Below are positions 46,789-54,789 of a DNA stretch of 64,000 bases, piece after piece (the first letter of the stretch is position 1; every line of letters starts with the position of its first letter). The notes beneath the pieces were generated by a model. That model was not told where the DNA came from and ran no database searches. It saw nothing but the letters and a program-made list of their open reading frames with translations. Source of the DNA: Persephonella hydrogeniphila (lineage in GTDB: Bacteria > Aquificota > Aquificia > Aquificales > Hydrogenothermaceae). Made by a program: the position numbers and the translations under genes. The stretch lies in assembly GCF_900215515.1 (NCBI RefSeq), contig NZ_OBEI01000001.1, positions 62,001 to 126,000 on the forward strand, given 5' to 3'.

Positions 46789-47949
46789 ATGCTTTCAGAC
46801 ATATACGGGCAGGATAAGAGGGATAAGTATCTGCTTATTTATAACCTTTTAAAAGATAGAAATATATTTGGTATTGTATATGGAAAGAGAGGGATAGGAA
46901 AAAGATTTATCATTAACAAGGCAATCAGATCTATTTCCACACCTGAAGATAGAGTCGTGTTTTTGGAAGCAGGAGATAATATTTATACCTCTATACTTAG
47001 AGAGTTAGGTATTTATGAACATGAAATATACACAAAAGAGGACTTTCTTATTTATTTTATTGACTTTGTAGAAAAGTTTAAGGGGAGAATTTTTATAGTA
47101 ATAAATAATGCTCAGAAATTCACAGAGAAAGAACTATCAGAAATATTCCATCTCCTCAGTCTAAAGGAAAGGGTATCTACTATTCTAATTGGCGATGAAA
47201 CCCTGAAAGAAAAGTTAAACCCTTTTAAGATTGGAAAGATGGAAGCGGCAGTAAATTTTGTGTTTGAGATTAATCCTCCTGAGTTTGAAGAGTTTAAAAG
47301 ATATTTTGATGAAAAATACGGAGGAAAGATTGAAAAAAAAGCCTTAAAAAAACTTTATCAGATTTCAGGAGGTTCTCTTTCAGATGCAGAGAATATAATT
47401 ATCCAGTTAGGAAAATTTCCTATTAAAGCTTCAGATCTAAAAACAAAAGATAAAAATCTGCCTGTTATGATATCTGTTTTACTTTTGACGATTGCTATTA
47501 CAGTTGTTATCTCTTATATGATTTTGAAGCCTGAGGAAGAAAAAAAAGAGATTAAAAAGATAACAGTGATAGATAAAAAGCTACCTGAAGAAGGTTCTGT
47601 CATAAACGAACTTCCTGTAAAACCTAAAAAGAAAAAAGGATTTGATTCTGATAGACTTATTAAAGAAGTTTTAGAGGAATTATCAAAAATTCAGCTTCAG
47701 GATGTTCCAGAGCTCAGATTTTATGAAAAACCTAAAAAGTATATCATCCAGATAGCATCTTTTAAAAACGAGCAGTATGCATTAGAACTGAAAGAGAGAT
47801 TGAGTAAAAAATTTTTAGCAGAGATAATCACAAGAAAAAACGGCATAAAATCTGTTATTGTTTTTGCATCTAACAAAAAAGAAGTTGATAATATTATCAA
47901 TGAACTTAATAAGATGGGATTTAAACCTCTTGTCAGAAAGGTAAAATAA
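46789..47949 (+). CDS. Degenerate AAA-type protein with membrane anchor and SPOR domain
   Basis: 386 residues in three parts. A cytoplasmic AAA-like domain (about 1-210) has a damaged nucleotide site: the Walker A region reads GKRGIGKR (32-39), with Arg instead of Ser/Thr, and the Walker B end reads FIVINNAQ, with Asn106-Asn107 where the sister protein has Asp-Glu. A membrane segment (about 224-246) follows, then a charged linker and a C-terminal SPOR domain (about 316-384; YIIQIASFKNEQYA), which in other proteins binds denuded peptidoglycan. The layout is like DamX/ExeA-type proteins. AGGAG lies before the ATG. Its stop and the next ATG overlap (TAATG). Likely an envelope protein; exact role unknown. 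Confidence 0.75.
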   Translation: MLSDIYGQDKRDKYLLIYNLLKDRNIFGIVYGKRGIGKRFIINKAIRSISTPEDRVVFLEAGDNIYTSILRELGIYEHEIYTKEDFLIYFIDFVEKFKGRIFIVINNAQKFTEKELSEIFHLLSLKERVSTILIGDETLKEKLNPFKIGKMEAAVNFVFEINPPEFEEFKRYFDEKYGGKIEKKALKKLYQISGGSLSDAENIIIQLGKFPIKASDLKTKDKNLPVMISVLLLTIAITVVISYMILKPEEEKKEIKKITVIDKKLPEEGSVINELPVKPKKKKGFDSDRLIKEVLEELSKIQLQDVPELRFYEKPKKYIIQIASFKNEQYALELKERLSKKFLAEIITRKNGIKSVIVFASNKKEVDNIINELNKMGFKPLVRKVK

Positions 47950-49085
47950 TGGCTGATTATATCGAATTTTTTGGATTTAATGATAACCCATTCAGGATAA
48001 CACCGGATATAGATTTCTTCTTTATGTCCTCTGTTCATCAAGAGGCTCTTGCTTCTTTGGAATTTCTGTTAGAGAGCGAAGAAGGTTTTGCTGTTATTAT
48101 AGGTGAACCGGGAACAGGAAAGACTATTACGATTAGAAAATTTATAAGCCAACTTCCTGAGAATGTTGAGTATGCATACATTTTGTTTCCAAATCTTTCT
48201 CCTGAGGAGATGTTCAGAGCTGTTCTTGAGGACTTTGGGATAAAAATCCCTGATAATGCAACAAAAAACAAACTTTTTTCTCTGCTCAGAGAGTTTCTTA
48301 TCAAGAAAAAAAATGAAGGCAAAAAAATATTCATTGTTGTAGACGAAGCACAGAATCTTCCTGTGGAAACACTTGAGGAGCTTAGAATACTATCTAACCT
48401 CGAAACAGAAAAAGAAAAACTACTTCAGATAATACTTTTAGGTCAGCCTGAACTTGAAAAAAAGCTAAACTCCCCAGAGCTCAGACAACTGAGACAGAGA
48501 ATAACAGTACTGACACATCTGAGAAATCTTTCTAAAAATGAGATGATCGATTATATTAACTACAGACTTGCAAAAGCCGGTAACTCGACTATAAGAATAT
48601 CTCCTTCAGCTTACAATCTTATCTATAAGTACTCAGAAGGCAACGTAAGGCTTATAAATCTTATAATGGAAAGGGCTCTTATGTCTGCGTTCGTTAAAAA
48701 CAGGCATTCAGTAGATAAAGAAAATATCAAGGAGGCTGTGAATAGCCTCAATATAGAAAAAAAGCAAAGAAAGATTTATCCTGTTGTAGTGGCTGTTTTT
48801 TTAGTTTTTCTGATTGCTTTTGGAACTTCAGGTTATTATCTGTTTTCCGAAAGAATAGACAGCCCAAATCAGATAAAAAAACAAGAAAAAAAAGCCACTG
48901 TAACTGCAAATAAGCTTAATGTGAGAATTTTACCTGATAAAAATTCTGATATTGTATACGTTTTGAGTAAAGGAGATGAGTTAAAAATTCTTGGAGAAAA
49001 GGACGAATGGTACAGAATAAAGTATAAAAATGTAGAAGGTTGGGTGAAAAAAGATTTTGTAAGGAAAAGTAATGAACAGAAATGA
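47949..49085 (+). CDS. ExeA/GspA-like AAA ATPase with membrane anchor and SH3-type domain
   Basis: 378 residues with the same topology as the preceding gene. The cytoplasmic ATPase starts with FFGFNDNPFRITPD, typical of ExeA/MshM proteins, and is intact: Walker A GEPGTGKT (52-59), Walker B IFIVVDEAQN (Asp132-Glu133), sensor-like LLGQPELEKKL and LRQRITVL. A membrane segment lies at about 277-300 and a bacterial SH3 domain at about 312-373 (ANKLNVRILPDKNSD, GWVKKDFV), a likely peptidoglycan binder. ExeA couples ATP use to secretin assembly across the cell wall; no secretion or pilus gene is adjacent, so the process served is unknown. Confidence 0.85.
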   Translation: MADYIEFFGFNDNPFRITPDIDFFFMSSVHQEALASLEFLLESEEGFAVIIGEPGTGKTITIRKFISQLPENVEYAYILFPNLSPEEMFRAVLEDFGIKIPDNATKNKLFSLLREFLIKKKNEGKKIFIVVDEAQNLPVETLEELRILSNLETEKEKLLQIILLGQPELEKKLNSPELRQLRQRITVLTHLRNLSKNEMIDYINYRLAKAGNSTIRISPSAYNLIYKYSEGNVRLINLIMERALMSAFVKNRHSVDKENIKEAVNSLNIEKKQRKIYPVVVAVFLVFLIAFGTSGYYLFSERIDSPNQIKKQEKKATVTANKLNVRILPDKNSDIVYVLSKGDELKILGEKDEWYRIKYKNVEGWVKKDFVRKSNEQK

Positions 49086-49431
49086 GCTCAATGAGATTTT
49101 AGACAAGCCTATTAAACATGCAGAGGCTATTTTTGTCTATGAAGGCGGTATACCTACAGCATATAAATTTGCACCTTATATCCCTGATAATCCAGATACT
49201 TTTTTTATGTATGTTTCCCAGATAGACAGAATTTATCAGCATCTAAAAAATATCAGCTTTAATAAGCTGTACCATCATAAAGTAAGAGTAGGTAATAAAG
49301 AAATGTATATGTTTGTATACAGAATTACAGATGATGTTTATGTTTTTGTTTTTTCTGATAGCTTGGATATTGAACTGGGGCCAATACTGTTTAAGCAGGT
49401 AATTAAACCAATTATCAATCATTTTAAATGA
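49072..49431 (+). CDS. Small protein of the ATPase operon, unknown function
   Basis: 119 residues, soluble, no signal peptide. The predicted pattern of helix, two strands, helix, then strands (MYMFVYRI, DVYVFVFSD) and a final helix resembles the Roadblock/longin type of small regulatory fold, but this is only a shape guess and I do not recognise the family. It overlaps the ExeA-like gene by 14 bp, indicating cotranslation and probably joint function. Its 3' end overlaps convergent lipA by 13 bp. Confidence 0.7.
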   Translation: MNRNELNEILDKPIKHAEAIFVYEGGIPTAYKFAPYIPDNPDTFFMYVSQIDRIYQHLKNISFNKLYHHKVRVGNKEMYMFVYRITDDVYVFVFSDSLDIELGPILFKQVIKPIINHFK

Positions 49432-50258
49432 TTATACACCTCATCTGCATGGAATGAACTTCTCACAAGAATTCCGCTAAAAACGTGTTTAAATCCCATT
49501 TTTGTCCCTATTTCCTCAAACTCTTTAAACTCATCCTCTGTGTAGTATTTTATAACTGGGTGGTGGTTTTTTGAAGGTCGTAAGTACTGTCCCACAGTAA
49601 GTATTTCGCAATTTACAGAACGTAAGTCTTCCATTACTTTTATTACTTCCTCTTTTTTCTCTCCCAGACCAACCATTATTCCTGATTTTGATATTATTCT
49701 GCTGTCTAACTCCTTTATCCACTTTATTATATTCAGTGATCTTCTGTAATCTCCTCTATGCCTGACAACAGGAAACAGTCTTGGAACAGTTTCTATGTTG
49801 TGGTTTATGACTTCTGGATTTGATTTTACTACTATCTCAAGAGCTTTTATATCTCCTAAAAAATCGGGAATGAGAACCTCTACAGAACAGTCAGGATTTT
49901 GCTCCTTTACAGTCTGAACAGTTTTGGCAAAATGTGAAGCACCTCCATCAGGAAGATCATCCCTATTAACAGATGTAATGACAACATACTGCAGTCCAAG
50001 CATCTTTACTGCCTTTGCTATGTTATAAGGCTCAGAAGGATCTAAAGGGAGAGGTCTATCATGGGATACATCGCAGTATGTACATCTTCTGGTACATCTA
50101 TCTCCCATTATCATGAAAGTGGCAGTTTTTCTGCCAAAACAATCTCCTATATTTGGACATGAAGCTTCTTCACAGACTGTATGTAAATTAAGCATCCTGA
50201 GCATAGCTTTCATTTTTGTTACATCTTCAGTAAGAAAACTCTTAACTTTAGGTTTCAT
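49419..50258 (-). CDS. lipA: Lipoyl synthase
   Basis: Radical SAM enzyme inserting two sulfurs into octanoyl groups; 279 residues. The auxiliary cluster motif CEEASCPNIGDC (CX4CX5C) and the radical SAM motif CTRRCTYC (CX3CX2C) are intact, followed by DPSEPYNIAKAVK, YVVITSVNRDDLPDGGA and the C-terminal RSSFHADE serine motif. GAGGT precedes the ATG. The rest of the lipoate pathway is not in the window. Confidence 0.95.
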   Translation of the reverse strand: MKPKVKSFLTEDVTKMKAMLRMLNLHTVCEEASCPNIGDCFGRKTATFMIMGDRCTRRCTYCDVSHDRPLPLDPSEPYNIAKAVKMLGLQYVVITSVNRDDLPDGGASHFAKTVQTVKEQNPDCSVEVLIPDFLGDIKALEIVVKSNPEVINHNIETVPRLFPVVRHRGDYRRSLNIIKWIKELDSRIISKSGIMVGLGEKKEEVIKVMEDLRSVNCEILTVGQYLRPSKNHHPVIKYYTEDEFKEFEEIGTKMGFKHVFSGILVRSSFHADEVYNHLK

Positions 50259-53483: not shown

Positions 53484-53510
53484 TCGGGGAGTTCTAAGAA
53501 AGCTCCCCGA
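53484..53510. terminator. Hairpin between convergent hemE and diguanylate cyclase genes
   Basis: TCGGGGAGTT (53484-53493) pairs with AGCTCCCCGA (53501-53510), a 10-bp stem. It overlaps the last codons of the minus-strand gene. Neither side has a T run, so strength is uncertain. Confidence 0.45.
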
Positions 53511-54789
53511 TAATAACTCTGTTCTTACCTGATTTTTTAGCTTTATACATCAGTCTATCAGCTTCTTTTATAACTTCTGATAAAGGTTTTAGGATAGAAG
53601 ATTTTATGAGAACTCCTCCTATGCTTACTGTGAAACTGATCTCATCACCGTTTATCTTTATCTTTTCTTTTTGCACATTTGTTCTTATTTTTTCGAGGGT
53701 TTTCTCAAAACTTTTTTCAGTTGTTGCAGGAATAATAACGAGAAACTCTTCTCCACCGTATCTGAAAATATAATCTGATTTTCTCAACGATTTTTGTATT
53801 ATTTTTGATAATTTTTTCAGCACTTTATCCCCTACAGGATGTCCGTACATATCGTTAATTCTTTTGAAGTTGTCTATATCTATAAAGGCAACTCCGAAAG
53901 GTTCTCCTGTCAAAATAGAAAGCTCAGCTATCTTTAGGTAGATCTCTTCTAAAACCCTTCTTGTTAGTAATCCGGTTAAAGGATCTCTCTGTAGCTTAGA
54001 AACTTCCTCGGATATTATGAATGCGAGGATTCCTGATAAAAAAAGGAGACCTGTTTTCATAAAGTTGTTGTATTCATTTACAAGCAACAGGTATTTTTCT
54101 TCTTTTTTTAAAGAAACTATACTGACAGCTATATTATGGAGTTCATCATGCAGTTTTATTAAACCTTCTACAATTTTCGGATTGTCATTTCTGACATTTT
54201 CCAGCCATATTCCAAGCTCACAGTTTACAGGAGCTAAATCTACAGTTAGATTATTTTCGTTAATAAGGTAGTCAAGTATGTTTTCTTTCCACTGAATATG
54301 TCTGTACAGCATCTTTTTTATATCTAAAAATTTTTGCTGAAGATTAGCCTCTATGAAATTTCTCAGAAAGTATTTTTCTCGTTTTATGTATTCTTGCAGG
54401 TATCCTGCTGCAGTGTAATTTCTGACAACATCAAAAAAGAGAATATTTTCAAAAAAGAGCTTATCTATCTCCACATTTTTTGCCTTAAAGATCTCTTTCA
54501 TAAAGATAAGCTCAAATCTATTTATTGTCTCAACAAAAAGAGCAAAATCAATACCTATTTTTTCATGTAGTTTTCCAAGTTTTTTCAGTTCCTCATTTAG
54601 TTTTTCTTTATTTCCTGCTCTGTATAGATTGTAAAGGTATACAATTTTCTTCCTCTGCCGGATCTCCAACCTGTTAAGGTCAATATCACGGAGATATTTG
54701 TGGAAATACGGATTTGATACTATCTCTTTAAAAAAGTTCTGGTGGACTCTTTTTAGGATAGACAGTAAAATTTCGTCTTTGTTTTGCAT
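53494..54789 (-). CDS. Globin-like sensor, CZB zinc domain and GGDEF diguanylate cyclase
   Basis: 431 residues in three parts. Residues about 1-145 look like a globin-coupled sensor, with His75 in LHEKIGIDFALFVETINRF as probable proximal heme ligand. Residues about 160-225 match the CZB domain of DgcZ and chemoreceptors: His164, Cys190 in CELGIW, His214 and His218 (HDELH) are the four expected zinc ligands. The C-terminal GGDEF domain has GGEEF at 345-349 and an RxxD inhibitory site at 336-339, so it should make cyclic di-GMP and be product-inhibited. AGGAG precedes the ATG. Last gene of a long minus-strand run, one base after nfi. Confidence 0.85.
   Translation of the reverse strand: MQNKDEILLSILKRVHQNFFKEIVSNPYFHKYLRDIDLNRLEIRQRKKIVYLYNLYRAGNKEKLNEELKKLGKLHEKIGIDFALFVETINRFELIFMKEIFKAKNVEIDKLFFENILFFDVVRNYTAAGYLQEYIKREKYFLRNFIEANLQQKFLDIKKMLYRHIQWKENILDYLINENNLTVDLAPVNCELGIWLENVRNDNPKIVEGLIKLHDELHNIAVSIVSLKKEEKYLLLVNEYNNFMKTGLLFLSGILAFIISEEVSKLQRDPLTGLLTRRVLEEIYLKIAELSILTGEPFGVAFIDIDNFKRINDMYGHPVGDKVLKKLSKIIQKSLRKSDYIFRYGGEEFLVIIPATTEKSFEKTLEKIRTNVQKEKIKINGDEISFTVSIGGVLIKSSILKPLSEVIKEADRLMYKAKKSGKNRVIIGELS

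What the first reader, a model, noticed from the sequence alone, without database searches (positions are those of the whole stretch)
46789..49431. Pseudo-ATPase and active ATPase pair, each anchored and tipped with a peptidoglycan-binding domain, plus a third overlapping gene
Two adjacent proteins share one layout: cytoplasmic AAA domain, one membrane span, periplasmic wall-binding domain. In the first, Walker A ends GKR and Walker B reads Asn106-Asn107; in the second both are intact (GEPGTGKT, Asp132-Glu133). One carries SPOR, the other an SH3 domain. The stops and starts overlap (TAATG, then 14 bp), and a 119-residue soluble protein follows. ExeA-type ATPases normally sit with secretin or pilus genes; none is here. 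A heteromeric ATPase machine with a dead subunit that senses two kinds of cell-wall feature would be new.
Basis: partly seen in the sequence, partly recalled or inferred. Interest (0 to 1): 0.68.

Follow-up and report, generated by a model that had tools for sequence, protein, structure and literature searches.

The report
Pilus-assembly ATPase with dead partner
Two overlapping genes make a working and an enzymatically dead version of a wall-anchored ATPase that probably helps push an MSHA-type pilus pore through the cell wall, in a genus where this pair lies apart from the rest of the pilus genes.

Summary
P2 (47949-49085) is a GspA/MshM-type AAA+ ATPase with an SH3 tip. Its gene lies 3-8 kb from an MSHA-type secretin (MshL) locus in sister genus g3, in g5 and in a second family. 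Across 136 genomes of the phylum it co-occurs with that secretin (30 both, 3 P2 only, 11 secretin only, 92 neither). The window's own genome has such a locus 112 kb away, lacking an MshM gene. So "no secretin genes here" reflects relocation, not a new machine. P1 (46789-47949) is a fast-evolving relative of P2. Its P-loop ends GK[KR] and its catalytic Glu is Asn in all 12 congeners, under purifying selection (omega about 0.1). Relatives in other genera keep intact Walker motifs; three further lineages lost them. P3 has a predicted roadblock fold and adjoins lipA even where it is apart from P1-P2. Best reading: a displaced MshM unit for secretin passage through peptidoglycan, plus a pseudo-ATPase partner. 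Whether P1 and P2 form one ring is untested; single-gene genomes argue against strict dependence.

The parts
46789..47949 (+). P1: pseudo-ATPase; AAA_22 domain with GKRGIGKR and N106-N107, membrane span near 228-246, periplasmic SPOR domain (315-384)
46882..46905 (+). P1 degenerate Walker A (residues 32-39, GKRGIGKR; Ser/Thr replaced by Arg)
47104..47109 (+). P1 degenerate Walker B/catalytic position N106-N107 (Asp-Glu in P2)
47949..49085 (+). P2: GspA/MshM-type AAA+ ATPase, GEPGTGKT and D132-E133 intact, membrane span near 276-294, periplasmic SH3_3 domain (323-371)
49072..49431 (+). P3: soluble protein with predicted roadblock/longin fold (MglB/MglC-like); family found only in g1 and g3
47947..47951 (+). 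TAATG stop/start overlap P1-P2
49072..49085 (+). 14-bp overlap P2-P3
46001..46726 (-). SDR-type reductase gene, divergent neighbour; marks the syntenic site of P1 relatives in g1, g2, g3 and g6
49419..50258 (-). LipA-like (lipoyl synthase) gene, convergent neighbour of P3; adjoins P3 also in g3, where P3 is apart from the pair

Best explanation
P2 is the MshM (GspA/ExeA-class) assembly ATPase of the MSHA-type pilus of this organism. Its cytoplasmic AAA+ part hydrolyses ATP, its SH3 tip grips peptidoglycan, and with the GspB-domain protein of the pilus locus (MshK-like) it lets the MshL-like secretin pass or assemble through the wall. P1 is a relative of the same ATPase clan that keeps a P-loop but has lost the Mg-binding Ser/Thr and the catalytic acids; its SPOR tip binds denuded (septal) glycan. 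It most likely acts as a non-hydrolysing partner or placement subunit of P2. In g3 and g5 the pair lies beside the pilus locus; in this genus it lies apart from it. Shown here: motifs, layout, relatedness of P1 and P2, linkage and co-occurrence of P2 with the MSHA-type secretin, purifying selection on P1. Inferred: the P1-P2 complex, wall-binding specificity, and the assembly role. P3 is probably an accessory, possibly unrelated gene.
For: MSHA-type locus in the own genome (C1:219.8-229.7 kb) with prepilins, MshN-like TPR, MshL-like secretin (TIGR02519, 230 bits, cut-off 250), T2SSB/GspB-domain protein, MshE-like and MshG-like, but no MshM. Pair or P2 3-8 kb from the MshL-like secretin in g3, g5 and g17. 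Co-occurrence 30/3/11/92, p = 1e-17; by genus p = 0.0045; within the family p = 2e-5, while the LPS-locus paralogue shows none there (p = 0.74). Relatives found outside the phylum lie in secretin-ATPase-MshE-MshG order (L167) or beside an MshG-like gene (L166). P1-P2 profile match E = 2e-19. P1 omega 0.09-0.16, Asn106-107 invariant in 10 species. ExeA/GspA precedent: PMC4098917, PMC9239104; mshM mandatory in the MSH model: PMC6668835.
Against: No interaction data. G003 keeps P1 without P2, P3 or the MSHA-type secretin, and G012 keeps P2 without P1 (both assemblies about 70-74% complete, but the locus is contiguous without N). In g17 P2 works, if at all, without P1. G025 (96% complete) has P2 but no detectable MSHA-type secretin. 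Five genera carry the secretin without a P2 of this type. In g2 and g6 the P1-like gene at the SDR site is not beside P2.
Confidence: 0.6

Rival explanations
1. P1 and P2 have separate jobs: P2 is MshM for the pilus, while P1 is a DamX-like septal wall protein that merely shares a transcript with it.
For: SPOR domains go to septal glycan in known proteins (own knowledge; PMC7642682 seen as title and abstract only). G003 has P1 only and no MSHA-type secretin; G012 has P2 only. In g2 and g6 a P1-like gene stands alone at the SDR site. P1 evolves much faster than P2.
Against: P1 adjoins P2 in g1, g3 and g5, overlapping in nearly all, and in g5 the pair sits beside the pilus locus. E. coli DamX shows SPOR but no AAA_22 and no profile match to P1. 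The tip is not tied to one protein: P1-like genes of g2/g6 carry SH3-like repeats and P2 of g5 lacks SH3 and looks SPOR-like by eye.
Confidence: 0.25
2. A new heteromeric wall-sensing ATPase, independent of any secretin, built from P1, P2 and P3.
For: Conserved overlapping trio in the genus and no pilus gene in the window.
Against: Linkage and co-occurrence of P2 with the MSHA-type secretin; trio confined to one genus; P3 apart from the pair in g3.
Confidence: 0.08
3. P2 serves another secretin of the same genome (type II GspD or PilQ) rather than the MSHA-type one.
For: GspA-class ATPases classically serve type II secretins (PMC4098917, PMC9239104); the genome has two further secretins.
Against: Other secretins are in nearly all genomes searched, including the many without P2; P2 genes lie next to the MSHA-type locus, not those.
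Confidence: 0.07

Closest known systems
GspA/ExeA (type II secretion assembly ATPase, with GspB/ExeB)
   Same: AAA_22 cytoplasmic domain, one membrane span, periplasmic wall-binding tip (E. coli GspA: AAA_22 + C39-like + PG_binding_1); a GspB-type (T2SSB) protein is encoded in the pilus locus
   Different: Wall tip is SH3 or SPOR, not PG_binding_1; no C39-like part; the partner secretin is MSHA-type; BLAST similarity to E. coli GspA is weak; here with a second, dead copy
MshM of MSHA pilus loci
   Same: GspA-class ATPase that goes with mshL, mshE and mshG; mandatory in the MSH model (PMC6668835); a P2 relative sits in that order in L167
   Different: Not in the pilus locus of this genus; carries a wall-binding tip; direct comparison with Vibrio MshM not made
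XrtA/PEP-CTERM system-associated ATPase (TIGR03015)
   Same: Best NCBIfam match of P2, 266 bits over the whole ATPase part
   Different: Below the curated cut-off of 324.5 bits
DamX (SPOR division protein)
   Same: Bitopic protein with SPOR at the C-terminus
   Different: E. coli DamX shows no AAA_22 domain and no profile match to P1
Heteromeric Orc/RFC-type AAA+ rings
   Same: P1 model matches Orc/Cdc6/RFC/MuB folds; such rings include subunits without ATPase activity (own knowledge)
   Different: Membrane-anchored, wall-binding; no ring shown here

Membership tests
GspA/MshM-class assembly ATPase (P2) | AAA_22-type ATPase domain with intact Walker A and B | tested here: met
   AAA_22 7.7e-30; GEPGTGKT, D132-E133; K58, T59, D132 and E133 invariant in 13 aligned relatives
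GspA/MshM-class assembly ATPase (P2) | Single membrane span and peptidoglycan-binding periplasmic domain | tested here: met
   Hydrophobic span near 276; SH3_3 5e-13; wall binding itself not tested
GspA/MshM-class assembly ATPase (P2) | Genetic association with a cognate secretin | tested here: met
   Adjacent in g3, g5, g17; co-occurrence p = 1e-17; unlinked in g1
GspA/MshM-class assembly ATPase (P2) | Needed for secretin assembly | not testable with these tools
   Needs mutants
TIGR03015 XrtA/PEP-CTERM ATPase (P2) | Score over the curated cut-off (324.5 bits) | tested here: not met
   266 bits
Active AAA+ ATPase (P1) | GxxxxGK[ST] Walker A and acidic Walker B | tested here: not met
   GK[KR] in 12 of 12 congeners; second acidic position Asn in 12 of 12 and first Asn in 11 of 12
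DamX (P1) | SPOR domain | tested here: met
   PF05036 1.2e-8
DamX (P1) | Similarity outside SPOR to DamX | tested here: not met
   hhalign probability 0.1% against E. coli DamX, which has no AAA_22; other DamX proteins not tested
MSHA-type pilus locus (own genome) | mshA, E, G, L and M present | tested here: inconclusive
   A-, E-, G-, L-like present, MshL model 230 of 250 bits; no M in the locus, P2 proposed as M
Roadblock/LC7 (P3) | Fold of MglB/roadblock | tested here: met
   Model pLDDT 93; MglB Foldseek E 9e-4, probability 1.00; VIA-align Z 9.4, rmsd 3.2 over 111 (3t1r), top Z 12.7
Roadblock/LC7 (P3) | Sequence match to the Pfam family | tested here: not met
   No Pfam match at E up to 1

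The most novel reading that the evidence does not exclude
P1 and P2 form one mixed AAA+ ring in which a catalytically dead subunit, with its own wall-binding tip for a different glycan feature, decides where a secretin is pushed through the wall; a pseudo-ATPase in the GspA/MshM class that arose several times in parallel.
Probability: 0.35. Interest if true: 0.62.

Novelty: new variant of a known kind. Interest (0 to 1): 0.42.

Why it matters
How secretin pores get through an intact wall is open. A natural live/dead ATPase pair with exchangeable wall tips (SH3 or SPOR) gives a handle on whether hydrolysis and wall recognition are separable. It also points to an MSHA-type pilus system in a phylum that a broad survey did not list for MSH (it named Gamma- and Epsilon-proteobacteria and Chrysiogenetes; PMC6668835), and shows why gene neighbourhood in a single genome can mislead.

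Tried and rejected
Independence from secretins: rejected after the neighbourhood and co-occurrence survey. P1 as a decaying pseudogene: rejected (omega about 0.1, no stops). P1 as DamX orthologue: no similarity outside SPOR to E. coli DamX. Trio as an ancient unit: P3 is apart from the pair in g3 and absent elsewhere. The promoter scan found no more than shuffles (15 versus 12.5). Paper searches on ExeA/GspA, MshM and DamX did not bring up a GspA-class pseudo-ATPase, but only a few hits were read and the library is incomplete. The tree has long P1-side branches, so the order of P1 losses is uncertain. The mixed ring was not modelled: the structure tool takes single chains.

Full report
Observation. 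The three genes, their overlaps and motifs are as described. P1 and P2 have one layout: AAA_22 domain, one membrane span, wall-binding tip (SPOR in P1, SH3_3 in P2). P1 reads GKRGIGKR and Asn106-Asn107; P2 reads GEPGTGKT and Asp132-Glu133. No secretin and no MSHA-type component lies in the window.

P1 is a conserved pseudo-ATPase in this genus. In all 12 congeners with P1 the Walker A ends GK[KR] and the catalytic position is Asn; the first acidic residue is Asn in 11 and Asp in one (G003). In the ten species checked by codon alignment, P-loop glycines and lysine and Asn106-107 are invariant although mean identity is 52%, and omega is 0.09-0.16. The residues that mark it as dead are thus kept, which argues for a function without hydrolysis and perhaps with retained nucleotide or phosphate binding (inference). 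Relatives elsewhere are different: G030, G034 and G036 (g5) and the SDR-site genes of G014 and G018 have canonical Walker A, while g3, G017 and G029 have lost the P-loop altogether. Loss on the P1 side therefore probably happened several times; the tree puts P1 of g1, g3 and g5 in one group (97/94), opposite P2 with its close relatives (100/99), with long branches on the P1 side. P1 and P2 profiles match at E = 2e-19.

The pair belongs with an MSHA-type pilus. In g3 (G015) the pair stands at the same SDR site and is followed, after a GGDEF gene, by prepilin, MshN-like TPR, MshL-like secretin, MshK-like, MshJ-like and MshI-like genes. In g5 (G030, G017) the pair is beside the same set. In a second family (g17) P2 alone stands next to it. 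The own genome has this locus at C1:219.8-229.7 kb, 112 kb from the pair, with MshE- and MshG-like genes but no MshM-like one. Its secretin scores 230 bits for MshL (cut-off 250), and its MshK-like protein carries the GspB domain T2SSB just above cut-off. Over 136 genomes P2 (E up to 1e-95) and this secretin (E up to 1e-100) are together in 30, P2 alone in 3, secretin alone in 11, neither in 92 (p = 1e-17; by genus p = 0.0045, as genomes are not independent). Within the family the association holds (18/2/5/16, p = 2e-5), while the close paralogue between lptA-like and aroA-like genes shows none (p = 0.74). The thresholds were set by me after seeing that the hits fall into two classes. Outside the phylum the two closest contexts found were a secretin-ATPase-MshE-MshG row (L167) and an MshG-like neighbour (L166).

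Mechanism. ExeA needs its ATPase and its wall-binding domain to assemble the ExeD secretin with ExeB (PMC4098917), and GspA/GspB domain make-up varies among bacteria (PMC9239104). By analogy P2 is the motor for MshL-like secretin passage. P1 most likely binds or places P2, but this is inference; adjacency and near-universal overlap with P2 support it, and single-gene species (G003 with P1 only, G012 with P2 only, contiguous loci without N, incomplete genomes) speak against mutual need.

P3. Its model (pLDDT 93) has a roadblock/longin fold, with no Pfam match. The family occurs only in g1 and g3; in g3 it lies next to lipA, about 58 kb from the pair. Its place in the trio is probably recent, so a shared function is unproven.

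Names. MshX-like labels for the pilus locus rest on gene order, Pfam/NCBIfam matches for the secretin, TPR, T2SSB, T2SSE/MshEN, T2SSF and prepilin parts; the MshI- and MshJ-like labels rest on order and size only.

Noticed in passing
L035:8248-9174 (own genome C1 about 10.2-11.2 kb): A third GspA/MshM-like ATPase (308 aa, C-terminal membrane span, no wall tip) lies between lptC/lptA-like genes and an aroA-like gene, 52% identical to P2, and similar genes are widespread in the family; it may have an LPS-transport role.
   Followed up: partly
L035:173-1781: An MglA-like GTPase, a further protein and an MglB-type roadblock-like protein are clustered on the own chromosome (by eye); P3 could be a further partner.
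   Followed up: no
window 53494-54789 and L048:11130-12377: A GGDEF protein about 4 kb downstream of the trio is related (32% identity) to one that directly follows P2 in g3; the MshE-like ATPase has a c-di-GMP-binding N-terminal motif.
   Followed up: no
L123:14783-16288, L048:12381-14468, L050:3835-6087: The MSHA-type loci encode very large prepilin-like proteins (500-750 aa), one with a putative Ig domain, possibly tip adhesins.
   Followed up: no
L083:7210-9607, L085:2055-4621: In g2 and g6 another tandem pair of P2-type ATPases exists, away from the SDR site; in G018 both carry SH3_3 tips.
   Followed up: partly
L143:6106-7533, L144:1899-3140: g4 genomes carry an AAA-like protein without a P-loop and with SH3-like repeats, apparently another independent pseudo-ATPase of the P1 side.
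   Followed up: partly
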